Shown here in pieces: positions 10,751 to 37,461 of a stretch of 40,356 nt of DNA. The stretch's first letter is position 1. Every line of letters begins with the position of its first letter. Source of the DNA: Anaerolineales bacterium (GTDB taxonomy: Bacteria; Chloroflexota; Anaerolineae; Anaerolineales; Villigracilaceae); the NCBI GenBank assembly GCA_016789365.1, contig JAEURH010000025.1, positions 1 through 40,356 of the forward strand. Direction: 5' to 3'. The notes under the pieces are model-generated. The model was given only the letters and a program-made list of their open reading frames with translations, searched no databases and was not told the origin of the DNA. The position numbers and the translations under genes are program-made.

Positions 10751-10821
10751 GCGGGTGTAGTTCAGTGGTAGAACATGTGCTTCCCAAGCACAATACGCGA
10801 GTTCGATTCTCGCCACCCGCT
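10751..10821 (+). tRNA. tRNA-Gly (anticodon CCC)
   Basis: A full cloverleaf: acceptor GCGGGTG/CACCCGC, D arm GTTC/GAAC, anticodon arm TGTGC-TTCCCAA-GCACA with CCC at positions 34-36, and T arm GCGAG-TTCGATT-CTCGC. The discriminator base is T, and the 3' CCA is not encoded. A terminator follows at once. Confidence 0.95.
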
Positions 10822-10824
10822 CTG

Positions 10825-10854
10825 CAGCCGAGTTCTTTTTGCTCGGCTGTTTTT
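10825..10854 (+). terminator. Intrinsic terminator after tRNA-Gly
   Basis: CAGCCGAG (10825-10832) pairs with CTCGGCTG (10842-10849), then a T run. It separates the tRNA from the sensor operon. Confidence 0.85.
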
Positions 10855-10945
10855 GCAATACAGTTGGAATTCTATTTGTAAGGTACCTGTTATGCGTGTA
10901 TCTTGGTATTGAAAGTAAAATTCTGGCTGGAGTTTTAAATTAGAA

Positions 10946-11338
10946 ATGTCAGACTTTAATAAAGGTACGGTTTTGTACGTAGAAGATAATCCGGATAACA
11001 GAAATCTGATTCGGAGAGTCTTAAGTGCTGATGGCTACGATATGATTGAAGCCGCGAAAGCAGAGCAAGCCTTTGAAAAACTTGAGAACGAAAAAATTGA
11101 TTTAATTTTGATGGATATTAACATGCCAGATATGGATGGCTATACTTTAACTGCAAAAATAAAACAAATTGAAAAGTTTTCAAAAATTCCGATTATTGCA
11201 GTAACTGCAAATGTAATGCGCGGAGACCGTGAAAAATCACTGGAAGCCGGGTGTGATGGTTATATTCAAAAACCGATTGATATAGATACCCTCACCCAGC
11301 AAATCGAGCGCTTCATTATAAGGAGCACAAATGGCTGA
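10946..11338 (+). CDS. Single-domain response regulator (CheY/DivK-like)
   Basis: A 130-residue stand-alone receiver domain with no output domain. The acidic pocket E13-D14 (YVEDN), phosphoacceptor D57 (LILMDINMPDMDG), T87 and K109 (YIQKPID) are all present, so it should accept phosphate. The sequence style is close to DivK-like regulators. It is the first gene of a long co-directional run. Its last eight bases overlap the second regulator, which implies coupled translation. The likely phosphodonor is the only histidine kinase nearby (32375-35686), which is inference. ATG 10946 has GGAG 13 bases upstream, a rather long spacing. Confidence 0.92.
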   Translation: MSDFNKGTVLYVEDNPDNRNLIRRVLSADGYDMIEAAKAEQAFEKLENEKIDLILMDINMPDMDGYTLTAKIKQIEKFSKIPIIAVTANVMRGDREKSLEAGCDGYIQKPIDIDTLTQQIERFIIRSTNG

Positions 11339-11789
11339 CAACGAACAAACCCCCGCAGTTTCGGATACGCAACCGATTCGCAAACCGAACATCCCGAAAG
11401 ACGCGGCTGTCTTGGTCGTCGAAGACAATGTATCAAATTTCGTTCTCATCGCCCGCATGTTGGGCTACTTGGGCATTCATTGTGAATGGAAAACATCTGG
11501 CTATGAAGTTGTTGAATATGCCGACACATTACCCCGCCTTGATTTGATTTTGATGGATATTCGTTTACCGTATGAAGATGGCTATGGTGCTTTGAAGAAA
11601 ATTCGCGCTTCAGACCGCTTCAAATCTGTGCCGATTATTGCCGTCACTGCTGAAGCCAGCATGGAACAAATGAAGAAAGCCCAAGATTCAGGCTTTGATG
11701 GATTCTTAGGCAAGCCGTTAGACCCAGACCGATTCCCTGACCAAATCCGCCGCATTCTTAACGGGGAACCTGTTTGGGAATTTACTTAG
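11331..11789 (+). CDS. Single-domain response regulator
   Basis: A 152-residue receiver with an extra disordered N-terminus of about 24 residues containing several Pro. E31-D32, D76 (LILMDIRLPYEDG), T106 and K128 (FLGKPLD) are conserved. No output domain is present, so it acts through protein contacts or as a phosphate shuttle or sink. It overlaps the upstream regulator by eight bases and the first sensor follows after 18 bases. Two paired small receivers next to a kinase that carries two receivers of its own suggest a phosphorelay with several outputs. Confidence 0.92.
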   Translation: MADNEQTPAVSDTQPIRKPNIPKDAAVLVVEDNVSNFVLIARMLGYLGIHCEWKTSGYEVVEYADTLPRLDLILMDIRLPYEDGYGALKKIRASDRFKSVPIIAVTAEASMEQMKKAQDSGFDGFLGKPLDPDRFPDQIRRILNGEPVWEFT

Positions 11790-11807
11790 TTTTATCTACG
11801 CCTCAAC

Positions 11808-14800: not shown

Positions 14801-14930
14801 TCGCCGCTCAACCGATATTCAATCGATTTTGATGACAACGGCTAGCGAAATTACTAGAGTAACAGGCGCGCGTTTTACGAAAATTCAAGTGAAACCAACT
14901 GGTAATGGTCAAACGAAAGATGAATCGTAA
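11808..14930 (+). CDS. Membrane sensor with HAMP and about five GAF domains
   Basis: A 1040-residue receptor and the longest of nine sensors. Two membrane helices (about 26-46 and 65-88) flank only about 18 residues, so there is almost no extracellular domain. A HAMP domain (about 89-140) and an ERARQIR coiled coil follow, then GAF modules at about 160-315, 325-480 (weak), 490-645, 655-815 and 825-985. The fourth (NFYHAAIFLLD, LPDTRAEAAIPLRVG) is closest to the third GAF of the downstream kinase. The tail begins a further GAF helix and then stops. There is no kinase, cyclase or methyl-accepting domain. It probably senses a cytoplasmic ligand or the membrane state. ATG 11808 has no clear ribosome binding site; ATG 11832 is an alternative. 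Confidence 0.88.
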   Translation: MTKSTLPAMDTKEINTSLTSKLVRTIFFVAFIPLAGLVGLIYFRTRALLLEINSPTASAQVTELTLFTVLVSLGVFGVLYALLNWGVSRFIQPLQSLADSARRFTDGDWTQRVEISSNDEVGVIANSFNHMAGQLGEVYQSLEKKVDERARQIRTAAEVAQNVTTTLNLDDMLNKTTELLVQEFGFYQASIFQIDRGGKYADFKSGSGPATKELFNKKYRLEVGSASIIGWVAAKNQARITSNVSEDPLHLRNELLPETKSEATVPISLGNLVLGVLDVQSTQAAEFSPDTVVMLQTLASQIASAIQTTGLIEASQINFQEMERLYRSSRLIAEANNESEILNVGGQILRNAPYPIVVFKVEKDLLRVIASADTTRNVAEIEGLPTPIKVQPEEIYDYLLRGVANANLIDSHTPKVFKDLIHNLDLMGAVFIPVRRGNTLASIMMIGSRQQTLSNTSIQPYINLADLMSVALERAGAVKETSKHLHEVEALASINDLISSAADMQSFYHDLLAKIKQIIGDYNLIVALYDEKSNSISIPFSYENGQVISIDSFPLGEGLTSILIRTRQPLMIVEDTERKLAQLGAKIAGKPAKSWMGAPMLVHNNPIGALIIQDLDREQVFNEDDLKFFTTLAGQVAGVIHNAALLDESQRRALQLETAAEIARDISGSLDLDELLVKAVGLIRERFNFYHAAIFLLDLPGEFAVIREATGEAGAQMKRAGHKIGVGSKSIVGFVTGRGETLVVNDTSKDATYYANPLLPDTRAEAAIPLRVGDRILGALDVQSTKPYSFSEDNLRSLQILADQLAVAVANTELFAETQEHLSQHRLLHHITSTAASGSTLEEALESAVKGLQVTLGGDRVTILLVDREKKMLEVKASVGYAEDVTATNVEIGKGVTGWVAAHRRPLRIRDVNEDPRYIKFSPNTKSELAVPLIYRNEVLGVLNVESEQVDAYTENDEEMLGTLGGSLAAVIANARLFEQIRAQSERERLVYDITSKIRRSTDIQSILMTTASEITRVTGARFTKIQVKPTGNGQTKDES

Positions 14931-16517
14931 ATGAATAGTAATTCTTTTAACCAATCTGCTATTAACCCTGAAATTGAGACTCGCCAGTTATACAAAAATT
15001 GGAGAGAGCGCTTCGTTTTCCCATTGCTAATTGGGACTTTAATATTTGGGGCGGCGGCTTTAATCCCAGCCATGATTTCTTCAACGAATGTGGTTTTGGA
15101 TTCGATTTTCATTATCAGCTATTTACTGACTGCCGTTGTTACTGTCATTCGTTTTTCTTATACCATTCGTATGGTGGTTTTCCTCTTAAGCATTTATGTT
15201 TTAGGGATTAGCACCTTAGTTACATACAATGCTCTCGGCGTTGGTTTGTTTTATTTTTTAGCGTTGATTATATTTTCAACAATGATGCTCTCCATTCGAG
15301 CGGGCATTATTGCAATTGTGATTGATGTAATTACATATTTAGTTTTAGGCTGGTTAATGTTAAATGAATGGCTATTGCCATTAAATCCATTGTCAACACC
15401 TGCTAATCTTTTAGATTGGATTAGTGTTGGCGCGGCAACTGTGATGTTTGGCGTGGTCATTATTTTCGGTTTTCGCAGTTTAGAGCGAGAATTTTTTGAA
15501 GCACAAAAACAAATTGATACCACGCTAAACATATTAAAAGAAGAACGCAATAACCTTGAGAACAGGGTGCAAGAACGTACTCAACAGTTGAAAAAAATCA
15601 ATGAGATTGGTAGGAATGTTGTTGAGATTTTAGATTCTGACCAAATCTTTTCACGAGCCTCAAAATTCATTGAAGATGAATTTGATTGTTATTACACAGC
15701 CTTTTATTTAATTGATAGCTCTGGTAAGTGGGCAAGCCTAAGGTTTGCAAGTGGTGAAGCGGGCAAAGTTTTGAAAGAAAACAAACATCGTATTGATTTA
15801 GAAGGTAAAAGCAGCGTTGCTAAATCCATTCGTTCAAAAACCAGCCAAATTGCATCTGAGATTAATCAGATTCGTCTTGAAAATCCGCTTTTACCTTATA
15901 CCCGTTCACAACTTGTTTTACCATTATTAATTGGCGATACGGTTCTTGGTGTATTAGATATGCACTCGAGCAAAGAAAATGCTTTCAGCACACAAGAAGT
16001 AGATGCGTATCAAAACATGGCAAATGGTATTGCTACTGCAATTGAAAACTCACGTTTATTTCAAGAGGCACAACAAAGCCTTGCTGAAATGCGTGCTACG
16101 CAACGTCAGTATTTACAGAGCGCATGGGATTCTCTTACCAGTGACCGCCCACTTGAATATGAGTTAGGTGAAGTGGATGCCGATAGTGAGAATGCACTCC
16201 AAGTTCCACTTGCATTAAGAGACCAAGTGATTGGTGAAATTCAGATGGCAAGCAATGCCGCATGGACGCCAGAACAAAGAAATTTAGTAGAAGCCATTGT
16301 GGCACAGGCTACATTGGCTCTTGAAAATGCTCGTTTGGTAGAAGAGAGTCAATCTAGCGCGGCGCAAGAAAGACTTACTAATGAAATCATTGCCAAAATT
16401 TGGGCATCTGCAAACATGGATAATATTCTACAAACCACAGTGCGCGAGTTAGGGCGTAGTTTGGAAGCCACCGAAGTAGAAATTGAAGTTTCAATGGAAG
16501 AACAAGATGATAGGTAG
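14931..16517 (+). CDS. Six-helix membrane GAF sensor (sensor 2)
   Basis: A 528-residue protein with six hydrophobic helices (about 28-182), a coiled coil with VQERTQQL (about 187-228), one full GAF domain (about 230-380; LLPYTRSQLVLPLLIGD) and a shortened GAF-like module (about 395-470; W399, VPLALRDQVIGEI, LALENARLVEE). The tail (about 475-520) matches the first helix of another GAF. There is no output domain. The start codon directly follows the stop of sensor 1 (gap 0), so translation is probably coupled. The six-helix part resembles no ligand-binding domain that I can name; a MASE-like integral membrane sensor is possible. The GAF core is more divergent than in sensors 4-9. Confidence 0.87.
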   Translation: MNSNSFNQSAINPEIETRQLYKNWRERFVFPLLIGTLIFGAAALIPAMISSTNVVLDSIFIISYLLTAVVTVIRFSYTIRMVVFLLSIYVLGISTLVTYNALGVGLFYFLALIIFSTMMLSIRAGIIAIVIDVITYLVLGWLMLNEWLLPLNPLSTPANLLDWISVGAATVMFGVVIIFGFRSLEREFFEAQKQIDTTLNILKEERNNLENRVQERTQQLKKINEIGRNVVEILDSDQIFSRASKFIEDEFDCYYTAFYLIDSSGKWASLRFASGEAGKVLKENKHRIDLEGKSSVAKSIRSKTSQIASEINQIRLENPLLPYTRSQLVLPLLIGDTVLGVLDMHSSKENAFSTQEVDAYQNMANGIATAIENSRLFQEAQQSLAEMRATQRQYLQSAWDSLTSDRPLEYELGEVDADSENALQVPLALRDQVIGEIQMASNAAWTPEQRNLVEAIVAQATLALENARLVEESQSSAAQERLTNEIIAKIWASANMDNILQTTVRELGRSLEATEVEIEVSMEEQDDR

Positions 16518-18168
16518 AAACAATCCCCCTGTCAATAATGAAGCGCAAAAAACCTTCAATGTTGCTGAATGGCGTGAAGGTTTTATCCTTGCTTTGTTGA
16601 GAATCGGGTGCTTGCTTGGCATTGCTTTAATTGGGGTTTCATTTCCTAACGCCACTGCTAGCGACCGTATTTTGTTTGTTAGTTCATATCTTGGTTTATT
16701 GGCTATTACATTATTACATGTTCCGTATTCAGTTCGTGCTTATGCACTTTTATTCGTATCTTTTGCTATCGGCGTTAATGCGATTCTGGCATGGGGACCA
16801 TGGGTTGACGGTAGTGCCTTCCTTTTAGCAAGTGTTGTGGTTGGCGCATTATTATTTGATAGACGTGTAGATACAGTTATTTTTATAACTAGCATCATAT
16901 TGATGGCTACAGTTGCTGTATTGCAGTCACTCGGGGCATATCAGCTGAGAGCCGAAGCCGCACCAGAAACAACTTCAATTAATTGGCTAGGTTATATATT
17001 TGATTTTGCAGTGATAGGCGGGGTCATCGTTGCGGCAATGGGTCAATTTAAGAATGCGTTTTCTCGTATTATTCAAGATACCCAAACTGCTTTGCGGTCT
17101 GTAGCGATAGAACGTGAACGCTTAGAAGAAAAAGTGGTAGAACGTACTGAAGTGCTTGAGAGCAGAATGTCACAACTTCGTTCGGCAACAACTGCGGCAC
17201 GTTTGGTTGCGGAAATTCAAGACATTCCTGAATTACTAGAAACTTCTACAAAACTTCTCACAGAGAAATTTGGGTTTTATCATGTTGGTTTATTTATTCT
17301 TGATGAATATAAAAAAAATGCGTATTTACAATCAGCATCTTCTGCAAGAGGAAAAGAACTTCTTGGCGAAATATATAATTTAGAAACCAACAGAAAAAAC
17401 CCACTCGCTTTAGCGGTAGAGCAAAATCGCTCAGTCACCACCCTAGATGTAGACTCAAAGAATTTTGTTCCAGACGATAACTTTCCGCTTACACGCTCAC
17501 GCATGGCATTGCCGTTAGCAATACGAGGTGATGTGATTGGGGTTTTAGATTTACATTCAGACCAACCTCGTGCATTTAATATAGAAGATGCAGAAATTTT
17601 ACAAGCACTAACAGACCTTATTGCTATTGCATTTGACAACGTCCGCCTCATTAATGAGACGCAAAACTTGGTCAGCCAACTAGAAGCAAACACCTCCATT
17701 CAAACTCAACGAACATGGAGAAAACTCACTAGTCGTCAAATGCCTGCCTATCAGTACACGCCTGCGGGTGTACGCCCCATATTCAACCGTGCAAAAACAA
17801 GCAACAACGATGTTGATAATAAAAACAGCCTGCTTGTACCATTGGTTTTATATGGACAAACAATTGGTACTATCAAGTTAAAAAGAAAAAGCAATAGCCC
17901 AGATTGGACCGAAAGAGAAAAATCTTTGGTTGAAAAAATTGCCGACCAAGTTTCTTTGGCATTAGAAAACAGCCGCCTTGTGGAAGAAGCACAAAAAAGC
18001 GCTGTACGCGACCAGATGATTGCAAACATCTCTACCCGCATTCGTGAAACGCTAGATATTGAATCAGTTACCCGCACCGCCGCCGCTGAACTTCAGCGCG
18101 TGTTTGACTTAAAAGAAGCCGAAGTTGTGATTGGCTCTCAGTTTGAAAAGCAAGATGGAAAATCTTAA
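16507..18168 (+). CDS. Six-helix membrane GAF sensor (sensor 3)
   Basis: A 553-residue paralogue with six membrane helices (about 26-180), a coiled coil (about 190-228, VVERTEVLE), a GAF domain (about 230-385; FGFYHVGLFILDE, LTRSRMALPLAIRG) and the short GAF-like module with a leading Trp (TWRKLT), a YQYTPAGVRP strand and VPLVLYGQTIGTIKL. The tail is RDQMIANISTRIRETLDIES. There is no output domain. The frame is open from 16483, but ATG 16507 with GGAAG upstream overlaps the end of sensor 2 by 11 bases and is the best start. Within the cytoplasmic GAF the usual E-G-G-x-x-M-L motif of the later sensors is replaced, so the ligand may differ. Confidence 0.87.
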   Translation: MIGRNNPPVNNEAQKTFNVAEWREGFILALLRIGCLLGIALIGVSFPNATASDRILFVSSYLGLLAITLLHVPYSVRAYALLFVSFAIGVNAILAWGPWVDGSAFLLASVVVGALLFDRRVDTVIFITSIILMATVAVLQSLGAYQLRAEAAPETTSINWLGYIFDFAVIGGVIVAAMGQFKNAFSRIIQDTQTALRSVAIERERLEEKVVERTEVLESRMSQLRSATTAARLVAEIQDIPELLETSTKLLTEKFGFYHVGLFILDEYKKNAYLQSASSARGKELLGEIYNLETNRKNPLALAVEQNRSVTTLDVDSKNFVPDDNFPLTRSRMALPLAIRGDVIGVLDLHSDQPRAFNIEDAEILQALTDLIAIAFDNVRLINETQNLVSQLEANTSIQTQRTWRKLTSRQMPAYQYTPAGVRPIFNRAKTSNNDVDNKNSLLVPLVLYGQTIGTIKLKRKSNSPDWTEREKSLVEKIADQVSLALENSRLVEEAQKSAVRDQMIANISTRIRETLDIESVTRTAAAELQRVFDLKEAEVVIGSQFEKQDGKS

Positions 18169-18171
18169 TTG

Positions 18172-19875
18172 ATGAATCAATCATCCACCTCCCTAACCAC
18201 ACAACATGATTGGCGCGAAAGTTTCTTACGCACCACGCTTATCCTTGCATGTGCATTTGGCTTGGTAGCGTTAATATCATCTTATTTCAGTAGCGAACTG
18301 ATTTATTTTGTAATCTATTGTATTGTATATATCATCGTCGTATTTATTACTGTTTTATCTGTAACATATAACGTAAGAGCCATTACCCTTGTAGGGTTAT
18401 TAATTGGTCTTTCGATTTCTGGATTAACCGAAACAGGTTTAATCGGCGAAGCGCGTATCTTTATGTTAACTGCAATTGCGATGGCATCTCTGCTGTTTTC
18501 ATGGAGAATGGGTTGGTATATCACCATATTTGCTATGGTTTTGTATACAATTTTTGGTTGGTTAATTCTAGGTGGTCTTTTGACGATTTCAAATACCACA
18601 ATTGACCCTGGTAATTTAGTTTTGTGGATTACGCGAACATTAGTTTTGTTGCTGGTTGCGGTTCTCGTCGTAAATGCCATTCGCTTAAATCAAACAGAAT
18701 TCGCTAAATCAGAAGAACGTTCACAATCATTCTTAAGTGATTTACAAAAAGAACGAGGCTTACAAGAAGACCGTATTCAAGAACGTACACAGTTATTAGA
18801 CAAACGAACTAACCAATTACGCGCAGTAGCAGATGTAGGTAAATCTATTACATCGTACCGAAATCTTTCAGAATTATTACAACAAACCTCTCGTCTAATT
18901 AATGAAAATTTTGGCTTTTATCATGTTGGTATTTTTTTGTTAGATGAGCGCAAGCAATTTGCTGTATTAACTGCTACAAACAGCGAAGGCGGACAACGCA
19001 TGTTAGAAAGAGGACATCAGCTCAAAGTTGGCGAGACTGGTATTGTGGGTTATGTTGCCGAATCTATTAAAGCCCGTATCGCCTTAGATGTTGGTGAAGA
19101 TGCCGTATTCTTTAACAACCCAGACCTGCCAAGCACACGCTCAGAAATGGCGCTACCACTTGTTGTTGGTGGTCAAGTCCTTGGCGTGTTAGATGTGCAA
19201 AGCACAGAGCCAAATGCCTTTACTGAAGAAGATATTGCTACGCTTCAAATTTTGGCGGAACAATTAGCAGTTGCTATTCAAAACGCCAATTTATTTGCTG
19301 AAACAGAAAAAGCACTAGAAGCCTCTCGCCTCGCTTACGGTGAAGTCAGCCGCGAAGCATGGATTAAGATTCTACGCAACCGCCCTAACATTGGTTATAT
19401 TGCTACACCACCGGGCGTATCACAAACACAAAAGGCGACAGTTGAGCCAAGCATTGCAAAAGCAATTGATACAGGTGACTTAATTCTCGGTAACGATGGT
19501 TTGACCATTAGTGTGCCGATTAAGATTCGTGGGCAATCTATTGGGGCAATTCGTTTGAAAAAACCTGACATTGCAGAAGCATGGTCTCAAGAAGAGACCA
19601 ATTTAGCAGTGACATTATCTGACCAATTAAGCAGTGCCTTAGAAAGCGCACGGTTATATCAAGATTCACAACAACGTGTCGCACGTGAATCATTAGTATC
19701 TGATATTTCTGCTCGATTAAGTGCAGTGACACAAATGGATTTAATTATCCGTGAAACTGTGCAAGAACTTGGAGAAGCACTAGGCAATGCTTCCGTCACC
19801 TTCCAGTTAATAGAAGAGCCGAATGGAAACAAACCAACTATCAGAGAAAATGGAAGCGGAAAGGGGGTTGAATAA
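18172..19875 (+). CDS. Six-helix membrane GAF sensor (sensor 4)
   Basis: A 567-residue paralogue. Six helices (about 14-190) precede an IQERTQLLD coiled coil and a GAF domain (about 225-385) with the pattern shared by sensors 4-9: FGFYHVGIFLLD, N-S-E-G-G-x-R-M-L-E-R-G-H, GETGIVGYV, IALDVG-x-DAVFFNNPDLP, TRSEMALPL, LGVLDVQST. The short module follows (EAWIKILRNRP, GYIATPPGV, VPIKIRGQSIGAIRL), then a GAF-like first helix and a stop. There is no output domain. A TTG at 18169 precedes ATG 18172; ATG is preferred, three bases after the stop of sensor 3. Confidence 0.88.
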   Translation: MNQSSTSLTTQHDWRESFLRTTLILACAFGLVALISSYFSSELIYFVIYCIVYIIVVFITVLSVTYNVRAITLVGLLIGLSISGLTETGLIGEARIFMLTAIAMASLLFSWRMGWYITIFAMVLYTIFGWLILGGLLTISNTTIDPGNLVLWITRTLVLLLVAVLVVNAIRLNQTEFAKSEERSQSFLSDLQKERGLQEDRIQERTQLLDKRTNQLRAVADVGKSITSYRNLSELLQQTSRLINENFGFYHVGIFLLDERKQFAVLTATNSEGGQRMLERGHQLKVGETGIVGYVAESIKARIALDVGEDAVFFNNPDLPSTRSEMALPLVVGGQVLGVLDVQSTEPNAFTEEDIATLQILAEQLAVAIQNANLFAETEKALEASRLAYGEVSREAWIKILRNRPNIGYIATPPGVSQTQKATVEPSIAKAIDTGDLILGNDGLTISVPIKIRGQSIGAIRLKKPDIAEAWSQEETNLAVTLSDQLSSALESARLYQDSQQRVARESLVSDISARLSAVTQMDLIIRETVQELGEALGNASVTFQLIEEPNGNKPTIRENGSGKGVE

Positions 19876-19878
19876 AGC

Positions 19879-21570: not shown

Positions 21571-21583
21571 TTGCCGAGAAATA

Positions 21584-24508: not shown

Positions 24509-24528
24509 GCATTGCTTAGGAGCATACG

Positions 24529-26265: not shown

Positions 26266-26283
26266 AATGGTTTTGGAGTTTGT

Positions 26284-29127: not shown

Positions 29128-29128
29128 G

Positions 29129-31582
29129 ATGAATAACTTTAGCCTTCGCTTCATTGATTGGTTTAATCGCCTCAACCTACGCTCCAAATTGACTCTCAGC
29201 AACATGTTGATTACTCTCTTCGTCATTTTGAGTTTAGGCGCTTATGTGTATTACCGAACACAACAGGCGGGCATTCAATTAACCTCGCAACTTGAAGAAA
29301 ATATCCGTGACAGAGTAGAAGAAAACTTAGCATCTACCAGTAGCGAACAAGCGGCATTGTTAAATAGTTTTTTTACCACCTTAAGTGGCGATACCGCCGT
29401 TATAGGTTCTACTGTTGAAGATATTTTGAATAAACGCACTAGCCTTGATAGTGGCATGTATTGGGATGCAAACACATCACTGCTACGTTTGGAAAACGGC
29501 AGTTGGGATAATGATAATAATGAAGCATCTTCTATCTTCATCCCAGCCGATGTGCCACTCACTGACACGCTCGTTCGAAAATTAAATTCGCTCAAACATA
29601 CCGAATTAATGATTCCGTCATTCCTTAAAGATAACCCCGATATTGTGGCAATTTATTTCGGTGGCATATTAAAAGAAACAGTTTACTATCCAAACATTGA
29701 TTTGGCGAATATTGTTCCGCCAGATTTTGACGTGACCGGACGTGTTTGGTATGTGGATGCAAACCCACAAAACAACCCAGAAAGAAAAGTAGTTTGGTCT
29801 ACGCCTTATCAAGATGCGGCCTTAAACGGCTTGGTAATTACTACAAGTGTACCTGTATACAATTCTCAAAATAGATTCCAAGGCGTTGCCGCTATGGATG
29901 TGCAGTTAAATCAAATCACCAATATGGTTGGGAATATTCGCGTCGGCGAAACAGGTTATGCTTTTCTAGTAGATGCAGATAATCGTTTAATGGCATTACC
30001 CTCACAAGGCTATATTGATTTTGGCATTACGGATGCCACTCAAAACTTTGGTCAAGTGATGGATACGTCTACGTTGCCTGATGCCCCTGTAGAGTTGTTT
30101 GAAATTTTGAATCAAGTTTCCGCTGGAGAAAGAGGCGTTTTTAATATCGCATTAAACGGAAATGAAAGATTTGTCGCATTTCAGCAAGTGCCAGAAGTAA
30201 ATTACAAATTAGTCATTGTGGTTCCATCAAATGAAATGTTAACTGAAACCGCCATTGTTAACAGTCAAATTCAACAAGAGACTAGAAACACAATTGCAAT
30301 TAGTCTTTTATTAATCGCAGGTATTTTTGTTTTAGCTTCTATTACATCACTGGCTATTGGGAATAGGCTAACTACGCCTTTACAATCGCTGACGCGCGTT
30401 GCCAACGAAATTATTGCAGGTAATTTTGATGCCAAAGCAGAAGTTGAAACGAAAGATGAAATCGGTACCCTTTCAACTACATTGAATTCGATGACCACCA
30501 ATATCAAAGACATGGTGCAGTCACTCGAACAAAGAGTTCACGAACGAACTGCCGAACTGCAAGAATCTTTGGAAAAGAATGAAAGACGTAGCAAACAATA
30601 TGAAGCCATTGCTAAAGTATCGCAAGCCATTAATGCCACCCAAAACTTGCAAGAATTATTGCCACAAATTTCGCAAGTAATTAGCCAACAATTTGGTTTT
30701 TATCACGTTGGTATTTTCTTAAACGATGCAGGGAATCAATATGCTGTGTTAGGTGCCGCTAACAGTGAAGGTGGTAAGCGCATGTTAAAGCGCGGACATC
30801 AATTAAGAATCGGCGAACAAGGTATCGTGGGTTACGTCACTGGAACAGGCAGACCACGCATTGCTTTAGACGTGGGAAGTGATGCGATTTACTTCAACAA
30901 CCCTAACCTACCAGAAACACGCTCTGAAATGGCACTGCCCTTAACCATTGCTGGTCAAATCATTGGCGCGTTAGATGTGCAAAGTACAGACTCCAATGCC
31001 TTTACAGAAGAAGATGTAGATGTATTAAGTACATTAGCCGAACAAGTAAGTTTGGCAATTCAAAACGCGCGTTTGTATGAACAAACTCAAAAATCATTAT
31101 CAGAAGCAGAAGCAGTTTCACGGCAGTACTTCACCGAAACATGGAAGTCACTTTCACAAGAAAGCCGCATCGCTGGTTATCGTTACACACCTGCTGGCAC
31201 TGCACCCATCTCAGAAGAGAACCTGCCTGAAATCGCCAACACAGACCGAAGAAGCATTACAGTACCCATTACCATTCGCGGGCAAACAGTTGGTGAACTA
31301 GCCGTGCTTGTGCCAAAGCAAGAACATATCAAAGCCGACCAAATGGACTTGATTCATGCCGTAGCAGACCGTGTCGGCATCTTTGCTGAAAATGCAAGGC
31401 TATTCGATGAAACCTCTCGCCGTGCAGAACGTGAACATTTAGTATCAGATATTACGGCAAAAATTCGTTCCACCAACGACCCACGCGAAATGCTAGAAAC
31501 AGCAATTAAAGAATTACGCGAAGCATTAAATGTTTCGCGCATTGAAATCGTGCCACAAAAAGTTACATCATCAGATAAATAA
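29129..31582 (+). CDS. dCache-HAMP-GAF sensor, predicted amino-acid receptor (sensor 9)
   Basis: An 817-residue receptor with the classic layout: helix (about 20-42), dCache domain (about 45-385), helix (about 388-412), HAMP (about 412-465), VHERTAELQ coil, conserved GAF (about 490-650), short module (W672, YRYTPAGTAP, VPITIRGQTVGEL) and a GAF-like tail. In the dCache part R205, W207, Y208, Y227, D229 and D257 match in order and spacing the universal amino-acid-binding motif of dCache_1AA receptors such as PctA. An amino acid or amine ligand is therefore predicted. There is no methyl-accepting or kinase domain. ATG 29129, one base after the stop of sensor 8 with AGGA upstream, is preferred; ATG 29111 in the same frame is possible. 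Confidence 0.88.
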   Translation: MNNFSLRFIDWFNRLNLRSKLTLSNMLITLFVILSLGAYVYYRTQQAGIQLTSQLEENIRDRVEENLASTSSEQAALLNSFFTTLSGDTAVIGSTVEDILNKRTSLDSGMYWDANTSLLRLENGSWDNDNNEASSIFIPADVPLTDTLVRKLNSLKHTELMIPSFLKDNPDIVAIYFGGILKETVYYPNIDLANIVPPDFDVTGRVWYVDANPQNNPERKVVWSTPYQDAALNGLVITTSVPVYNSQNRFQGVAAMDVQLNQITNMVGNIRVGETGYAFLVDADNRLMALPSQGYIDFGITDATQNFGQVMDTSTLPDAPVELFEILNQVSAGERGVFNIALNGNERFVAFQQVPEVNYKLVIVVPSNEMLTETAIVNSQIQQETRNTIAISLLLIAGIFVLASITSLAIGNRLTTPLQSLTRVANEIIAGNFDAKAEVETKDEIGTLSTTLNSMTTNIKDMVQSLEQRVHERTAELQESLEKNERRSKQYEAIAKVSQAINATQNLQELLPQISQVISQQFGFYHVGIFLNDAGNQYAVLGAANSEGGKRMLKRGHQLRIGEQGIVGYVTGTGRPRIALDVGSDAIYFNNPNLPETRSEMALPLTIAGQIIGALDVQSTDSNAFTEEDVDVLSTLAEQVSLAIQNARLYEQTQKSLSEAEAVSRQYFTETWKSLSQESRIAGYRYTPAGTAPISEENLPEIANTDRRSITVPITIRGQTVGELAVLVPKQEHIKADQMDLIHAVADRVGIFAENARLFDETSRRAEREHLVSDITAKIRSTNDPREMLETAIKELREALNVSRIEIVPQKVTSSDK

Positions 31583-31620
31583 TAAAAAGTGATTTTGTGT
31601 AATTGAAATAAAGAGGAATT

Positions 31621-32409
31621 ATGTTAAAAACAATCGCAGTATCAAATGAAAAAGGCGGCGTGGCAAAAACCACCACTACCCTTTCACTCGGAGCCGCACT
31701 AGCAGAATTAGGCAACCGCGTTTTATTAATTGACTTAGACGCACAAGCCAACCTGACATTAGGTGTAGGTTTTGAACCTGGCGAAGCAGAATTAACTTCC
31801 AGTCATATTATGCTAGATAACACACCGATATTAAGCGTACGCCGCAAAACCGAAATTGAAAACTTAGATTTGATACCATCCAGTTCGCGCATTGAAACAT
31901 CCGAACAATTTTTGCCAGTGCGCACCAATTACACAACCATTTTACAAAGAGCCATGAAAGGCGCACCAAATCTTCCTTACGATTACATCGTGCTAGATTG
32001 CCCACCTGCATTAGGTGCTATCACCCGTAACGCACTCGCCGCCGCAGATATATTACTAATTCCAACCCAAGCAGAATATTTCTCTGCTTATGCCTTGCGA
32101 AACATGATGGGCTTAATTCGCAGAACGCGCGAAGTGGATAACCCAAATCTCGCTTATCGAATCTTAGTTACCATGTTAGATAGAAGAAATAAAACGCATC
32201 GCAACATTCACGAGCAACTCAGAAGCACATTCGGCACAGGTGTATTAAGCACCGTCATCGAGTTAGATACAAAATTACGCGAAAGCCCAATTGCAGGGTT
32301 ACCCATTACACACTATAAATCTGGCGCGCGCGGCTCTACCCAATACCGCGTATTAGCACAGGAGTTAATGCAATATGTCCAAGAAACAGAAAACAAACAA
32401 GCGGCTTGA
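31621..32409 (+). CDS. ParA/MinD-family ATPase
   Basis: A 262-residue P-loop ATPase of the ParA type. The deviant Walker A KGGVAKTT (11-18, signature Lys K11), DLDAQANLTLG (about 39-49) and the Walker B region VLDCPPALG are present. ParA proteins bind DNA non-specifically and move or space cargo when a partner stimulates ATP hydrolysis. No parB or parS is nearby. The gene lies between nine receptors and their presumed kinase and overlaps the kinase gene by 35 bases, so it is more likely an array-positioning ATPase (like PpfA with cytoplasmic chemoreceptors in Rhodobacter) than a chromosome partitioner. GAGG lies before ATG 31621. No terminator separates it from sensor 9. Confidence 0.92.
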   Translation: MLKTIAVSNEKGGVAKTTTTLSLGAALAELGNRVLLIDLDAQANLTLGVGFEPGEAELTSSHIMLDNTPILSVRRKTEIENLDLIPSSSRIETSEQFLPVRTNYTTILQRAMKGAPNLPYDYIVLDCPPALGAITRNALAAADILLIPTQAEYFSAYALRNMMGLIRRTREVDNPNLAYRILVTMLDRRNKTHRNIHEQLRSTFGTGVLSTVIELDTKLRESPIAGLPITHYKSGARGSTQYRVLAQELMQYVQETENKQAA

Positions 32410-35400
32410 TAAGCTCTTTCAGGATATTCAACCCGAAAACAATGATTCGGGAAAAAAGACCAAGCCTCCCGTTAAGAAAGAAGCGGTCGTTCCTCCGCCT
32501 CTTTCCACGCCCAAGCCTGTTTCTAAATCTGATGCCTCGTCTTTAACCCCATCAAAACTGCCTGCCATCAAACAAACTAGCAAATTGGTTTTGCCAGAAA
32601 TTGTGGCACCCATGCCTGATTCAAATGGTGGCTCTATTTATGCCGCTAATTTCCAAGTGAGTGAAAGCGATTGGGCAACCTTACGCCTCATTGACGAAAC
32701 TGGAAACCGTGCCTGGACAACCGATGAGCAATTGCTAATAAAGCAAGTCACCGACCAACTTTCATTAGCATTAGAGAATGCTCGCTTATTTCAAGAAACA
32801 CAAAGACGTGCACAAGAGTTAACCGTTGTTAACCAAGTCGTTTCATCGGTTTCGGCTTCGTTAGATTTGAAAAATACGCTCCAAACGATTGCAGATAATT
32901 TAGCGCAATTACTGAATGCGGGTCATGTTGGCATTACATTAATGAATGAAGATAAGACTCAACTCATTCTGACTGCTGATGCGAGTCTAAATTTTGAACG
33001 TTCAAATGATATTGGTTTGGCAATTCCTATTAAGGGAAGCCCAGCCACCGAAGAAGTGATTCGCTCGCGTAAACCTTTGTTCATCAAAGATGTGGAAAAC
33101 AATCCATTGACAGCGAACATCAAAGAAATCCTTAAAAAACGCGGTACAAAAAATTTATTGATATTGCCCTTACTGGCTGAAGATGAAGTGATTGGAACCA
33201 TCGGCGTAGATTTTTATGAGCCAGAACGTGTTGTTACAAAAGATGAAGTTGGCATTCTTGAAACAATTGTGTTCCAAACAGCAACTGCCATCCAAAAAAG
33301 CCAACTATTTGAAAAAATTGAGCAATCAGAAACAAACCTGCGTGCATTATTCTCTGCGATGGATGATGTCGTTATGGTAGTTACAAAAGATGGAAAGTAT
33401 GACCAAGTTGCTAACACAAATCCATCCGTCATGTTTCGCCCCGCCAGTGATTTGGTTGGGAAATATATGCACGAAATATTAGACAAAAGACTGGCTGATT
33501 ATTTTGTAGAAAGTATTCAAAAGACACTCGCTGGCACAGATAGAGTCCAAATTGAATACGAACTTGATGTTGAAGGTGAAAAAAGTTGGCGTTTAGCAAA
33601 CCTCACTAAACTTTCAGAAGACAAAGTTTTCTGGGTAGCAAGGGATATTACCGAACGCAAAAAAGCAGAAGAAGCCATTCAACGCCGCAACCAATACTTG
33701 GCTGTGTCGGCTGAAATTGGAAAAATCGTCACTTCTACATTAGACCTCAACACCATTTTTGCAAAAACAGTAAGCCTGATTACAGAACGCTTTGGCTTTT
33801 ATCATGCTGCTATCTTCATTGCAGAAGAAACAGGTTTCAATGCAGTCTTACGAGAAGCCACTGGTGAGGCAGGGGCTGAAATGAAAAAGGCTGGTCACTC
33901 TTTGGCAATTGATGATAAATCTATTGTAGGTAAAGTTTCATCAAATGGTGAGCCTGTTATCGTCAACGATACTGCCCAAGACCCACTTCATAAATTTAAT
34001 CCATTGCTTCCAGAAACACGAGCAGAAGCCGCAATTCCGCTACGAATTGGTTCACGCATTATCGGTGTGATTGATATTCAATCAAAAAGTGCAAATGCTT
34101 TTAGTGAAGATGAAATTTCAGTTCTACAAACCTTAGCCGACCAAGTGGCTGTGGCAATTGATAACGCGCGTTCGTTTGAACTTTCACAACAAGCTGTGAT
34201 GGAAATGCGTGAGATTGACCGCTTGAAGAGTCAATTCCTTGCTAACATGAGTCATGAATTGCGTACACCTTTGAACTCCATCATCGGTTTTTCTCGCGTC
34301 ATTCTTAAGGGGATAGATGGTCCTGTTACCGAATTAATGCAACAAGATTTGACAGCGATTTACAACTCTGGTCAACATTTGCTTGGTCTCATTAACGACA
34401 TCCTCGACCTCGCTAAAATTGAGGCGGGCAAAATGGAATTGGCGTTTGACGAAGTCAACATCACAGATTTATCAGCCAGTGTGCTATCTACCATGAGCGG
34501 TTTGATTAAAGATAAATCGATTCAAATGAAGCGTAACATTGAACCTGAGTTACCTCCTGTTAAGGCAGATGCGATTCGCATCCGTCAAGTGATGATTAAC
34601 TTATTGTCGAACGCGGCAAAATTTACCGAAGAAGGTGAAATTACCGTCGAGGTTGGTTTATATAAAAATAATGGACGCAATGAAGTTAAAGTAAGCGTAA
34701 TTGATACAGGTGCAGGTATTTCCAAAGCCGACCAAGAAAAACTCTTCCAACCATTTTCACAAGTGGATGCTTCACCCACACGCAAGACTGGTGGTACAGG
34801 TTTAGGCTTATCCATTTGTAAACAATTAATCAATATGCACGGTGGAGAAATTTGGGTTGAATCAGAAGAAGGCAAAGGCAGTAAATTCCATTTCACCTTA
34901 CCGATTTATCCAAAAGAAGGCGAAACCATTGCTGGAGAAAAAGTCATCTTAGCCATTGATGATGATATGCAAGTCATCAGTTTGTACGAGAGATATTTGC
35001 ATCCGCAGGGCTATCAAGTTGTCCCATTGACAGATGCGTCTCGTGCTGTTGAAAAAGTAAAACAACTCAAGCCATTTGCCATCACACTAGATATTATGAT
35101 GCCCGGCATTGAAGGCTGGACAGTTTTAGATGCGTTAAAAAGTGACCCAGACACACGTCACTATCCTGTCATTATTTGTAGCATCATTGAAGATTTAGAA
35201 AAAGGATTCAACCTCGGCGCATCAGATTATTTAGTCAAACCAATTCTTGAAGAAGATATTGTCAATGCGTTGGATAAATTAAATACCGACGGTTCAATTC
35301 GTGAAGTGTTAATTATTGACGATAACCCCAATGACTTACGCTTGATTGGAAAAATGTTGATGGATGATGGCAGATATAAACCGATTCTGGCTGATAGCGG

Positions 35401-35686
35401 ACAAAGTGGCTGGAACATTATCAAATCGGGTAACCCGCCTCATGCCATTATCCTCGACCTGTTTATGCCAGACCTCGACGGATTCCAGCTCCTCGAAAAA
35501 TTACAAGGCGATAAAAAACTGCGTGAGATTCCTACCATTGTAATCAGCGGTATGGAAGTAACCGTAGAACAAAAGAATCAATTGAAGGAATTTGGTCAAC
35601 GCTTGCTAACAAAAGGTTCTTTCAACGAAAAAGAATTACTCACATCCATTCAAAGGTCTTTGGAAAGAATTCAAAATTCAAAATAA
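32375..35686 (+). CDS. Soluble GAF/PAS hybrid histidine kinase with two receivers
   Basis: A 1103-residue cytoplasmic hybrid kinase without membrane helices. In order: a basic, Pro-rich disordered tail (1-80) that opens with NKRLDKLFQDI; half of the short GAF-like module (about 92-140, LALENARLFQE); GAF (about 155-310); PAS (about 320-430); GAF (about 440-600); dimerisation domain with phospho-His H627 (SHELRTP); ATPase (about 730-845; NLLSNAAKF, DTGAGI, GGTGLGLSI); receiver 1 (D906, K955); receiver 2 (D1028, K1080). It is the only kinase in the cluster. ATG 32375 has GGAG ten bases upstream and overlaps parA by 35 bases. I infer that it collects signals from the nine kinase-less sensors and feeds the small regulators and the threonine synthase receiver. 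Confidence 0.93.
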   Translation: MSKKQKTNKRLDKLFQDIQPENNDSGKKTKPPVKKEAVVPPPLSTPKPVSKSDASSLTPSKLPAIKQTSKLVLPEIVAPMPDSNGGSIYAANFQVSESDWATLRLIDETGNRAWTTDEQLLIKQVTDQLSLALENARLFQETQRRAQELTVVNQVVSSVSASLDLKNTLQTIADNLAQLLNAGHVGITLMNEDKTQLILTADASLNFERSNDIGLAIPIKGSPATEEVIRSRKPLFIKDVENNPLTANIKEILKKRGTKNLLILPLLAEDEVIGTIGVDFYEPERVVTKDEVGILETIVFQTATAIQKSQLFEKIEQSETNLRALFSAMDDVVMVVTKDGKYDQVANTNPSVMFRPASDLVGKYMHEILDKRLADYFVESIQKTLAGTDRVQIEYELDVEGEKSWRLANLTKLSEDKVFWVARDITERKKAEEAIQRRNQYLAVSAEIGKIVTSTLDLNTIFAKTVSLITERFGFYHAAIFIAEETGFNAVLREATGEAGAEMKKAGHSLAIDDKSIVGKVSSNGEPVIVNDTAQDPLHKFNPLLPETRAEAAIPLRIGSRIIGVIDIQSKSANAFSEDEISVLQTLADQVAVAIDNARSFELSQQAVMEMREIDRLKSQFLANMSHELRTPLNSIIGFSRVILKGIDGPVTELMQQDLTAIYNSGQHLLGLINDILDLAKIEAGKMELAFDEVNITDLSASVLSTMSGLIKDKSIQMKRNIEPELPPVKADAIRIRQVMINLLSNAAKFTEEGEITVEVGLYKNNGRNEVKVSVIDTGAGISKADQEKLFQPFSQVDASPTRKTGGTGLGLSICKQLINMHGGEIWVESEEGKGSKFHFTLPIYPKEGETIAGEKVILAIDDDMQVISLYERYLHPQGYQVVPLTDASRAVEKVKQLKPFAITLDIMMPGIEGWTVLDALKSDPDTRHYPVIICSIIEDLEKGFNLGASDYLVKPILEEDIVNALDKLNTDGSIREVLIIDDNPNDLRLIGKMLMDDGRYKPILADSGQSGWNIIKSGNPPHAIILDLFMPDLDGFQLLEKLQGDKKLREIPTIVISGMEVTVEQKNQLKEFGQRLLTKGSFNEKELLTSIQRSLERIQNSK

Positions 35687-35702
35687 ATGATATGATTTGA
35701 CT

Positions 35703-35733
35703 ACGCCGCCGTAAACGGCGGCGTAATTATTTT
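35703..35733 (+). terminator. GC-rich hairpin between kinase and threonine synthase
   Basis: ACGCCGCCG (35703-35711) pairs perfectly with CGGCGGCGT (35716-35724) around a TAAA loop. The tail AATTATTTT is only partly T-rich, so it could be a leaky terminator that lowers expression of the last genes. Confidence 0.5.
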
Positions 35734-35756
35734 ACTCATCAGGAGACTCACTCAAC

Positions 35757-37406
35757 GTGTCCTTCATCATCAAATGCCTAGACTGTGGGCATAATGCACC
35801 CTACTACCCTACTTCTACCACTTGCCCAAAATGTAACAGCCAATGGCGTGAAGCAGAATACGATTATGAATTAATCGGAAAAACATTGCTTTCCAAATTA
35901 GTTGGAAGAAGCTCAGACCTATGGCGTTATAAAGAACTATTGCCAGTCCGAAACCCAAATATCAGCCTTTCATTAGGTGAAGGTAATACACCTTTAGTGC
36001 GTGCTGTGAATTTGGGAATGATGCTCGGTTGCCCCAACATTTACATCAAAGATGAACGCCAAGGACCGACGGCTTCTTTCAAAGACCGTCAAGCGGCAGT
36101 GACGATTGCGGCATTGAAAGAAGCCGGGATTACAGAATTAGTAGCCGCTTCTACTGGGAACGTGGCAATTGCTTACTCCGCGTATGCCTCTCGCGCAGGG
36201 ATGAAGTTGTGGGCATTTGTCACCAGCCTTGTGCCCGGAGTCAAGATGCGTGAAATCGCGTTGTATGGCAGTCAAGTTATCAAAATCACCGGTTCGTATG
36301 ACCAATGTAAACAAGTAGCGGCAGAGTTTGCTCGTCAACGAAAATTGTATTTAGATATGGGCGCACGCACGATTACATCTATTGAGGCGATGAAAACGAT
36401 TGCGTTTGAAATTTCTGAACAACTGACTGCTATTCAAGGCGCAGGCGAAGCAACGCCATGGCGCACACCAGATTGGTATGTGCAAGCCATTAGTGGTGGC
36501 ATGGGACCGATTGGCGTTTACAAAGGGTTTCGTGAAATGCAACAAATGGGCTGGACGGATAAAATCCCTGCCTTTGCGCCGATTCAAACCGAAGGTTGTG
36601 CGCCAATGGTCAATAGTTGGAAAAAGGGATTAGAAAAAGCAGAACCAGTATTAAACCCAAAAACAAGAATTGAAACCTTAGCCACTGGTGACCCCGGACG
36701 TGCTTATGAATTTTTGCGTGCGCATGTCAATAATACAAATGGTGTTTTTGAAAGCGTCAGTGATGAAGATGCGCATCGGGCTATGCACGTCTTAGCAAAA
36801 ATGGAGGGCATTTCTGCTGAACCTGCCGCAGGTGTAGCCTTTGCAGGTTTATTCAAATTGATTCGTGCAGGTGTTATCAAGCCAAGTGATACTGTCGTGG
36901 TGAATTGCACAGGTCACACGTTACCTGCTGAACCGATTGTATTAGGCGATAACTGGTCACGCGATGTCAAGTTCCCATCTACCGAAACACCACAAGAAGG
37001 TTTGCTATCAGCATTAACAGAAGTTGCCCCAGAGCGCTTTCCGAAAATTGCAATTGTAGAAGACACCACCGAAGCACGCCGTTTGATTCGCCGCATTTTA
37101 CAATCGCAAGGTAATTTCACAATTTTAGAAGCCGCCAATGGGCGAGAAGGTTTGGAATTAATTCAAAGTGAATTACCTGATTTAGTTGTGATTGATTTAA
37201 TGATGCCTGAAATGGACGGCTTCACAGTGATTGAAGAACTGCGTAAAAAACAAGAGACTGCTACTATCCCCGTCATTGTAGTAACTGCGAAAGAACTAAC
37301 TCCTGATGAAAAAAGTCGTTTAGGAGGGCATATCCAAGCTTTGTTACAAAAAGGTGACTTTTTGAATGATGAGTTCCTTGAAGAAGTAAAATCACTCATT
37401 AAGTAA
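35757..37406 (+). CDS. thrC: Threonine synthase fused to a response-regulator receiver
   Basis: A 549-residue fusion. Residues 1-30 form a Cys4 zinc ribbon (C7, C10, C23, C26). Residues about 40-405 are a PLP-dependent threonine synthase: GEGNTPLVR, K109 in TASFKDR (PLP Schiff base), ASTGNVA phosphate loop, and the C-terminal NCTGHTLPAEP. It would convert O-phospho-L-homoserine to threonine. Residues about 428-549 are a complete receiver: E435-D436, phosphoacceptor D480 (VVIDLMMPEMDGF), T510 and K532 (LLQKGDF). The receiver is most like receiver 2 of the upstream kinase in having LL-x-KG-x-F instead of the usual KP. A GTG start at 35757 has AGGAG 11 bases upstream. Phosphorylation may control activity or place the enzyme at the array. 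This fusion is unusual. Confidence 0.9.
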   Translation: MSFIIKCLDCGHNAPYYPTSTTCPKCNSQWREAEYDYELIGKTLLSKLVGRSSDLWRYKELLPVRNPNISLSLGEGNTPLVRAVNLGMMLGCPNIYIKDERQGPTASFKDRQAAVTIAALKEAGITELVAASTGNVAIAYSAYASRAGMKLWAFVTSLVPGVKMREIALYGSQVIKITGSYDQCKQVAAEFARQRKLYLDMGARTITSIEAMKTIAFEISEQLTAIQGAGEATPWRTPDWYVQAISGGMGPIGVYKGFREMQQMGWTDKIPAFAPIQTEGCAPMVNSWKKGLEKAEPVLNPKTRIETLATGDPGRAYEFLRAHVNNTNGVFESVSDEDAHRAMHVLAKMEGISAEPAAGVAFAGLFKLIRAGVIKPSDTVVVNCTGHTLPAEPIVLGDNWSRDVKFPSTETPQEGLLSALTEVAPERFPKIAIVEDTTEARRLIRRILQSQGNFTILEAANGREGLELIQSELPDLVVIDLMMPEMDGFTVIEELRKKQETATIPVIVVTAKELTPDEKSRLGGHIQALLQKGDFLNDEFLEEVKSLIK

Positions 37407-37444: not shown

Positions 37445-37461
37445 AACAAAGGTTGATATTC

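What the first reader, a model, noticed from the sequence alone, without database searches (positions are those of the whole stretch)
10946..37406. A 26.5-kb operon of nine output-less GAF receptors, one kinase, ParA and a receiver-tagged enzyme
The sequence shows 14 co-directional genes with gaps of 0-70 bases and several overlaps. Nine are membrane receptors with GAF domains but no kinase, cyclase or methyl-accepting domain. Only one histidine kinase is present, soluble and itself built of GAF, PAS and half-GAF parts. Two free receivers and a receiver-tagged threonine synthase can act as outputs. I infer a multi-receptor array in which many sensor proteins feed one kinase, working like chemoreceptors but without MCP or CheA/CheW parts. 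I know of no described system with this composition.
Basis: partly seen in the sequence, partly recalled or inferred. Interest (0 to 1): 0.88.

Follow-up and report, generated by a model that had tools for sequence, protein, structure and literature searches.

The report
ParA-linked many-receptor, one-kinase sensory operon
A long gene cluster, kept across a large group of bacteria, encodes many membrane sensors that have no output of their own beside a single signalling enzyme and a DNA-partitioning motor, which suggests a sensory array built from parts unlike the known bacterial chemotaxis array.

Summary
Fourteen co-directional genes (10946-37406) encode two free receivers, nine membrane GAF receptors without output domain, ParA, one soluble hybrid kinase, and a threonine-synthase-like enzyme fused to a receiver. 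ParA is followed by the kinase in 57 of 61 family loci; 42 family operons that reach their starting receivers hold 3-13 receptors, median 9. 456 of 457 receptor ORFs end in one shared tail, and the kinase begins with a segment homologous to it.

(1) The gene after ParA carries a ParB-like N-terminal peptide (KRLDKLF): 57 of 58 versus 22 of 1121 other genes. It sits on the kinase in this family, on a membrane receptor in five more distant loci. (2) One relative without ParA and without other strong tail matches carries receptor S1 fused to the kinase inside the shared tail.

Best explanation: many receptors feed one kinase by direct contact, and ParA spaces or partitions the complex, as PpfA/TlpT does for cytoplasmic chemoreceptors, without MCP, CheA or CheW. 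Contact and clustering are inferred. Counter-examples exist: G116, G097, G051.

The parts
10946..11338 (+). REC1, free single-domain receiver
   Evidence: Pfam Response_reg 4.6e-31; REC-REC pair starts the operon in relatives
11331..11789 (+). REC2, free single-domain receiver; 82% identical to its counterpart in the reduced operon of G015
   Evidence: Pfam 5.5e-21; identity
11808..14930 (+). S1, output-less membrane receptor: 2 TM, HAMP, four GAF domains, tail
   Evidence: tail match 75.8 bits; found fused to the kinase in G015
14931..16517 (+). S2, output-less receptor: MASE11, GAF, tail
16483..18168 (+). S3, output-less receptor: MASE11, GAF, tail (TTG start; start uncertain)
18169..19875 (+). 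S4, output-less receptor: MASE11, GAF, tail (TTG start)
19879..21570 (+). S5, output-less receptor: about 6 TM, GAF, tail
21545..24508 (+). S6, output-less receptor: multi-TM, dCache, HAMP, GAF, tail (TTG start)
24529..26265 (+). S7, output-less receptor: 6 TM, GAF, tail
26284..29127 (+). S8, output-less receptor: multi-TM, dCache-like (under cut-off), HAMP, GAF, tail; cytoplasmic part modelled (28000-29124)
29111..31582 (+). S9, output-less receptor: dCache, HAMP, GAF, tail
31621..32409 (+). ParA, small ParA ATPase with deviant Walker A KGGVAKTT, no ParB in the operon
   Evidence: Pfam AAA_31 1.9e-48; invariant K11 and K16 in alignment A1 of 8 sequences
32375..35686 (+). HK, soluble hybrid histidine kinase: ParB-like N-terminal peptide, linker, half-GAF, GAF, PAS, GAF, HisKA, HATPase, REC, REC
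32375..32434 (+). ParB-like basic N-terminal peptide of HK (M-S-K-K-...-N-K-R-L-D-K-L-F); the first 35 bases overlap parA
   Evidence: 56 of 57 family kinases; column conservation; 57 of 58 against 22 of 1121
32435..32629 (+). variable, Pro-rich, predicted disordered linker of HK (about aa 21-85)
   Evidence: pLDDT under 50 for aa 18-39 and 41-85; unconserved in A4
32630..32857 (+). half-GAF (two strands) and 46-residue helix of HK, homologous to the receptor tail
   Evidence: kinase 32681-32956 scores 70.2 bits to the tail model; model; fusion junction
35757..37406 (+). threonine-synthase-like PLP enzyme fused to a C-terminal receiver
   Evidence: PALP 1.1e-64, Response_reg 4.5e-21; below the thrC cut-off

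Best explanation
A many-receptor, one-kinase sensory complex. Each receptor senses with its own N-terminal part (Cache, MASE11 or another membrane domain; in some relatives a periplasmic binding protein gene stands among the receptors) and ends in a GAF, a long helix, a minimal GAF and a second long helix. That tail is a truncated copy of the input stalk of the one operon kinase. Receptors and kinase associate through this shared stalk, so that receptors set the activity of the kinase, which passes phosphate to its own receivers, to REC1 and REC2, and to the receiver-tagged PLP enzyme. The basic ParB-like peptide at the kinase N-terminus, on a disordered linker, touches ParA and stimulates its ATPase, so that ParA spaces or partitions the receptor-kinase complexes. 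Shown: gene content, conserved order, shared tail, conserved peptide next to ParA, adaptor on kinase or on receptor by lineage, one natural S1-kinase fusion. Inferred: physical contact, ParA stimulation, clustering, direction of phosphate flow.
For: Conserved order. 456 of 457 receptor ORFs end within 45 aa of the tail model's end (eight are the window's own training members). 54 receptor C-halves (53 chosen from 131 usable of 156 found, plus S8) all carry GAF and none an output domain. In the own genome the best tail matches after the eight training members are two receptors of a second kinase + PALP-REC locus, S1, and the N-terminus of this kinase (70.2 bits; next 58.6). ParB-like peptide in the gene after ParA: family 57 of 58 vs 22 of 1121 other genes; order/class 13 of 17 vs 2 of 202; named loci 41 of 46 vs 7 of 339. 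The same peptide sits on a membrane receptor in L118, L124, L127, L128, L129. Register matches ParB of relatives, MAQRKGLGKGLDALI. G015: S1 aa 483-1015 (61%) joined to HK aa 112-844 (53%), no ParA orthologue, one weak tail match elsewhere. Presence and absence: 10 of 10 ParA-positive genomes tested have 6-15 tail matches; of 25 ParA-negative genomes 17 have none and 4 one weak match. PALP-REC orthologue in 10 of 10 vs 3 of 21. Own genome: no MCP or CheW match. Modular positively charged ParA-activating peptides and the TlpT/PpfA precedent: passages of PMC7993993 and PMC3964821.
Against: No experiment, and no complex could be modelled here. GAF-helix chains are generic, so the kinase N-terminus exceeds other GAF proteins in the tail search only modestly (70.2 vs 58.6 bits; 99 matches in all). 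G116 and G097 (L046, L047) keep ParA, 78-79% identical, with no operon around it. G051 keeps receptors (six tail matches, five of them in one contig run) with unrelated genes where ParA and the kinase should follow (L307). The own genome has many other kinases (55 HATPase matches). The fusion is one case from one draft genome, and it keeps a motif-like RRLEAIF near its start although ParA is gone. Part of the kinase peptide is encoded in the overlap with parA. MCPs occur in 11 of 41 genomes searched, the own one included in the 41, so absence of chemotaxis is not general; the own genome is only 86.5% complete.
Confidence: 0.6

Rival explanations
1. Receptors modulate the kinase (or several kinases) by forming mixed pairs through their GAF helices, as single complexes, without any higher-order cluster. 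ParA has a separate task.
For: Shared tail and kinase stalk, tandem-GAF fold with long helices like PDE5, CyaB2 and phytochromes, natural fusion of one receptor to the kinase, ParA kept without the operon in L046 and L047.
Against: The ParB-like peptide is strongly tied to the gene after ParA and sits on kinase or receptor by lineage. G015 has neither ParA nor other strong tail matches.
Confidence: 0.2
2. The operon is only a co-expressed set of sensors. Each acts through other kinases or through bound small molecules, and the operon kinase is one sensor among ten.
For: Many kinases elsewhere in the genome. G051 keeps receptors without the kinase downstream.
Against: High-scoring C-terminal tails in this genome were found only in the operon and at C22, both with a kinase and PALP-REC. 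Receptors, ParA and PALP-REC largely occur and are absent together. The fusion joins S1 to this very kinase.
Confidence: 0.12
3. ParA with the kinase peptide partitions the kinase itself with the nucleoid, as a cell-cycle or segregation signal, and the receptors are incidental inputs.
For: The peptide sits on the soluble kinase in this family. At L120 a ParA of this kind is followed by a TPR protein with a near form of the peptide. ParA persists alone in L046 and L047.
Against: In five loci of other Anaerolineae the peptide sits on a transmembrane receptor. Of 25 ParA-negative genomes, 21 have no tail match or one weak one.
Confidence: 0.1

Closest known systems
Cytoplasmic chemoreceptor cluster of Rhodobacter sphaeroides with PpfA (ParA) and TlpT
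   Same: ParA encoded next to the receptor-kinase genes; [quoted passage not shown])
   Different: No MCP signalling domain, CheA or CheW in the operon. The peptide is on a HisKA hybrid kinase (or on a GAF receptor in other lineages), and the receptors are membrane proteins. TlpT sequence not compared
ParC/ParP-localised chemosensory arrays of Vibrio
   Same: A ParA-like protein localises a many-receptor array (start of the abstract of PMC5706961 seen in a listing; passage of PMC9178275)
   Different: MCPsignal and CheW were sought in the own genome and not found; ParP and CheA were not searched by name
Hybrid histidine kinase phosphorelays (BarA/TorS/LuxQ type)
   Same: HisKA, HATPase and receiver domains of the operon kinase
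   Different: No membrane sensor of its own; sensing would lie in nine separate output-less receptors
Tandem-GAF regulators (PDE5, CyaB2, phytochromes)
   Same: Fold of the receptor cytoplasmic part: GAF, long helix, GAF, long helix
   Different: The chain stops where an effector would start
ParB and other ParA/MinD ATPase-activating proteins (PomX, MinE, TlpT, McdB)
   Different: Cargo is a sensory kinase or receptor; activation not tested

Membership tests
Chemosensory (MCP-CheA-CheW) array | MCP signalling domain in receptors | tested here: not met
   No MCPsignal match in S1-S9, none in 54 receptor C-halves, none in the own draft genome
Chemosensory (MCP-CheA-CheW) array | CheW coupling protein | tested here: not met
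   No CheW match in the own genome, which is 86.5% complete
Chemosensory (MCP-CheA-CheW) array | CheA-type kinase (Hpt, P3, P4, P5) | tested here: not met
   The operon kinase is HisKA-HATPase-REC-REC. CheA elsewhere in the genome was not searched by name; its CheW-like P5 domain (recalled) should have rung
Chemosensory (MCP-CheA-CheW) array | Many receptors clustered with one kinase | not testable with these tools
   Genetic linkage only; needs imaging
ParA/AAP cargo-positioning system | ParA with deviant Walker A and both lysines | tested here: met
   KGGVAKTT, K11 and K16 invariant in 8 sequences
ParA/AAP cargo-positioning system | Partner with short basic N-terminal peptide | tested here: met
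   56 of 57 kinases, mean net charge +3.5, minimum +1, in the first 12 residues of those 56; 57 of 58 vs 22 of 1121
ParA/AAP cargo-positioning system | Stimulation of ATPase and cargo movement | not testable with these tools
   Needs biochemistry and imaging
Two-component phosphorelay | HisKA, HATPase and receivers with phospho-acceptor Asp | tested here: met
   Pfam matches; Asp and Lys present by eye in REC1, REC2, both kinase receivers and the PALP receiver (sequences; which residues are key is recalled)
Threonine synthase (ThrC) | Score over the curated thrC cut-off (TIGR00260) | tested here: not met
   153.7 vs 167.1; another gene reaches 306.7

The most novel reading that the evidence does not exclude
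A second, independently built class of bacterial receptor array: up to 13 interchangeable output-less GAF receptors and one HisKA kinase form a membrane-attached cluster through a common helical stalk, and an orphan ParA, driven by a ParB-like peptide that evolution has placed on the kinase in one lineage and on a receptor in others, spaces and inherits the cluster. Its outputs include a receiver-controlled metabolic enzyme.
Probability: 0.45. Interest if true: 0.92.

Novelty: new variant of a known kind. Interest (0 to 1): 0.82.

Why it matters
Chemotaxis arrays are the textbook case of many receptors sharing one kinase. A parallel solution from unrelated receptors and an ordinary HisKA kinase, with its own ParA adaptor, would show which array principles are general (common stalk, shared kinase, inherited clusters). 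It gives specific handles: a peptide of about 15 residues to test on ParA, a defined receptor tail, and a natural fusion that marks the likely contact. The operon is widespread in Anaerolineales (filamentous and hard to culture, recalled) and also sits in the named strain Anaerolinea thermolimosa IMO-1, so it can be tested. Ten literature searches with various aims turned up no description (open-access papers only, seen as listings).

Tried and rejected
Promoter and terminator scan over 10400-30000: numbers near those of shuffles (44 vs 46.4; 22 vs 19.3), so no evidence for or against internal transcription units. PADLOC on five of the fourteen proteins: two marginal matches, no defence reading. 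PDB sequence search with the first 102 residues of the kinase: nothing. Foldseek says only tandem GAF and phytochrome-like; pdb_via and viral libraries were not used. The tail model is partly a GAF model and rings 99 times in the genome, so I used only high scores and C-terminal position. The claim that the PALP-REC gene is the threonine synthase of the cell was rejected.

Rows dropped: L084 (0 receptors, another context) and two order-level loci (L115 with 4, L116 with 2 receptors) were left out of the family count of 42; of the 45 rows 38 reach two receivers, the rest one. In one search loci without a usable ORF after ParA (family: L046, L047, L054; order/class: L123, L130, L132; named: L211) are outside the denominators; L054 does carry the peptide. 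Misses inside the denominators: L084; L120, L126, L131, L133; L238, L239, L242, L243, L246. By eye L120, L126, L131, L238 and L239 show a near form; the others do not. L230 fell under the ParA score limit and has a near form. L032 is broken in the assembly or gene call. I fetched 60 of the 94 other ParA-bearing family genomes. The named loci overlap with the family set.
Full report
What is there. The window is a whole contig (C177) of a 3.8-Mb draft genome, 86.5% complete. Close named relatives are Anaerolineales genomes (ParA 97-98% identical in UBA2317 and new MAG-271), and a genome of the same genus group (G100) is listed as Candidatus Villigracilaceae AMX68 (matched by its 17188-base contig). 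Fourteen plus-strand genes lie between 10946 and 37406 with gaps of -35 to +70 bases. Pfam confirms the content: two receivers, nine membrane receptors with GAF and no output domain, ParA, a soluble kinase with GAF, PAS, HisKA, HATPase and two receivers, and a PALP enzyme with a receiver.

Conservation. I searched ParA in 120 genomes of the family, the own one included. 95 hold an orthologue of 58% identity or more over nearly the whole length; apart from one fragment at 66% (G020), the next matches are at 45% or less. I fetched surroundings for 60 of the other 94 and added the window. Of these 61 loci, ParA is followed by the kinase in 57, a PALP enzyme was found in 55, with its receiver in 49; several of the rest were cut by the 20-kb stretch. 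The four without a kinase hit are L046, L047, L084 and L083; in L083 the protein after ParA has the peptide and GAF domains, and the named record of the same genome (L223) shows the kinase domain in the next gene. Upstream stretches for 40 loci show that the operon starts with REC-REC and S1. In 42 family operons that reach at least one starting receiver, the window included, there are 3 to 13 receptors, median 9 (after leaving out L084 and two order-level loci). The same order occurs in the order-level loci L114-L116, in Anaerolinea thermolimosa IMO-1 (L228) and in an A. thermophila MAG (L237). In more distant Anaerolineae (L124, L126-L129) the order is REC-REC-kinase-ParA-receptors.

Receptor tail. 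456 of 457 receptor ORFs end within 45 residues of the end of a tail model built from S2-S9. 54 receptor C-halves (S8 and 53 chosen from 131 that met my length and tail limits among 156 found) all have GAF and no output domain. Within the window the first GAF domains of S4-S9 are 63.8% identical on average (S2-S9 49.5%), the sensory parts of S2-S9 28.6% (global alignment). In the own genome I fetched 20 stretches with GAF proteins (not every GAF protein). Two further tail-ended receptors lie at C22 beside another kinase and another PALP-REC gene; the other GAF proteins in these stretches carry a kinase domain or end otherwise, by eye often like GGDEF or HD-GYP proteins (those signatures are recalled, not scanned). 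The tail model finds, after its eight training members (164-217 bits), the two at C22 (88.9, 83.3), S1 (75.8) and the N-terminus of the operon kinase (70.2), then other GAF proteins from 58.6 down, 99 matches in all. AlphaFold gives GAF, a 53-residue helix, a minimal GAF, a 46-residue helix and a short terminal helix (mean pLDDT 81); Foldseek matches tandem-GAF proteins and phytochromes. The kinase N-terminal part (mean pLDDT 72) starts with a low-confidence helix (6-14), a disordered stretch to residue 85, two strands, and a 46-residue helix.

ParB-like peptide. The kinase N-terminus reads MSKKQKTNKRLDKLFQDI. In 56 family kinases the column of the final F is invariant (56 of 56), the residue before the first L is R in 54, the first L is L or I in all; conservation falls off within about 12 residues. 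ParB proteins of relatives could be read in 8 of 25 loci fetched (the others were on the other strand, cut, or of another kind); three begin MAQRKGLGKGLDALIPGG, the rest are close variants. In that form K9, L11, D12 and L14 stand in the same register as in the kinase (by eye). The peptide marks the gene after ParA: 57 of 58 in the family against 22 of 1121 other genes (14 of 464 GAF or tail proteins); 13 of 17 against 2 of 202 at order and class level; 41 of 46 against 7 of 339 in named loci, which overlap with the family set. In L118, L124, L127, L128 and L129 it sits on a transmembrane HAMP-GAF receptor (Pfam for L118, L124 and L128); in L120 a near form sits on a TPR protein. So the adaptor stays with ParA and changes its carrier. 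Papers read in passages describe such modular positively charged N-terminal activators, among them TlpT for PpfA (PMC7993993; PMC3964821; PMC9178275). I did not compare the TlpT sequence. Part of the peptide is encoded in the 35-base overlap with parA in the window; L231 has an overlap of only 20 bases and still has the motif.

Presence and absence. With the tail model at E 1e-19 or better, the 10 ParA-positive genomes that I chose have 6 to 15 matches each. Of the 25 genomes without a full ParA orthologue, 17 have none, four have one weak match (at most 82.1 bits) and four have several. Ten of the 17 are at least 90% complete. Of the four with several, G104 ends inside the operon, G103 and G062 lie on short contigs or contig ends, and G051 shows a run of receptors followed by unrelated genes. 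The PALP-REC orthologue (72% identity or more) is in 10 of 10 and in 3 of 21 ParA-negative genomes tested (the four with several tail matches were not tested): G020, whose ParA is a fragment; G029, where the kinase runs to within 0.8 kb of the contig end; and G015. G072 has only a 49% paralogue.

A natural fusion. In G015 (94% complete; locus L313) the order is REC-REC-kinase-PALP-REC, with no ParA between. The 1259-residue kinase aligns over residues 31-567 to S1 483-1015 (61%, 684 bits) and over 503-1252 to the operon kinase 112-844 (53%, 789 bits). The switch falls at about residue 550, inside the helix that S1 and the kinase share. The disordered linker and the C-terminal receivers are not in it, and the genome has one other, weak tail match (78.8 bits). 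A motif-like RRLEAIF remains near its start, of unclear meaning. This is one case from one draft genome.

Mechanism. The simplest reading is that receptors and kinase run side by side through the shared stalk, that the kinase is the one output, and that ParA, touched by the basic peptide, spaces or partitions the complex. That the peptide can sit on kinase or receptor fits a single cargo. Outputs would be the free receivers and the receiver-tagged PLP enzyme. The steps from contact to clustering are inference.

Against. G116 and G097 keep ParA without any operon around it, beside homologues of the polyprenyl synthetase and HAD genes that precede the operon in the window (L046, L047). Whether they hold receptors elsewhere was not tested. 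G051 keeps receptors alone at that place. GAF-helix chains are generic. Other kinases abound (55 matches). No MCP or CheW was found here, but 11 of 41 genomes have MCPs, so both kinds of system can coexist.

Standing. It works like a ParA-positioned receptor array but fails the tested defining features of the MCP-CheA-CheW family. It meets the sequence features of a two-component system and of a ParA with an activator peptide. Ten literature searches gave no description of it; subscription papers are not covered. I file it as a new variant of a known kind, and keep the bolder reading as the novel case.

Noticed in passing
G000 C22, locus L287: Second, smaller module in the same genome: two tail-ended receptors, a membrane GAF kinase and another PALP-REC gene; in relatives (L131, L132) a ParA stands in a like module.
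   Followed up: partly
L046, L047 (genomes G116, G097): ParA orthologue kept alone beside homologues of the polyprenyl synthetase and HAD genes that precede the operon in the window; the rest of the operon is not there.
   Followed up: partly
L307 (genome G051): Receptors kept but followed by unrelated genes instead of ParA and kinase.
   Followed up: partly
L083 7006-7998; L132 12614-13840; ORFs of about 320 aa in the joined loci of L041, L042, L049, L050, L055, L064, L070, L090: Genes for periplasmic binding proteins lie among the receptors (ABC_sub_bind and Peripla_BP_6 in the two scanned), suggesting ligand delivery to some receptors; the other ORFs of about 320 aa were not scanned.
   Followed up: partly
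L120 10574-13057: A ParA 45% identical to the window's is followed by a TPR protein with a near form of the N-terminal peptide, so the adaptor may be used on other cargo too.
   Followed up: partly
L223 (same genome as L083): The kinase seems split in two adjacent genes; the peptide is on the first, the kinase domain on the second.
   Followed up: no
L200, L204, L206-L208, L213, L215 downstream of the EamA gene: A converging receiver gene, in most of these seven followed by a kinase gene, stands after the EamA gene, a conserved flank.
   Followed up: no
window 37453-38409: EamA-family transporter gene 46 bases after the PALP-REC gene; a homologue lies in 38 of 60 fetched family loci (others may be cut), so it may belong to the operon.
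   Followed up: partly
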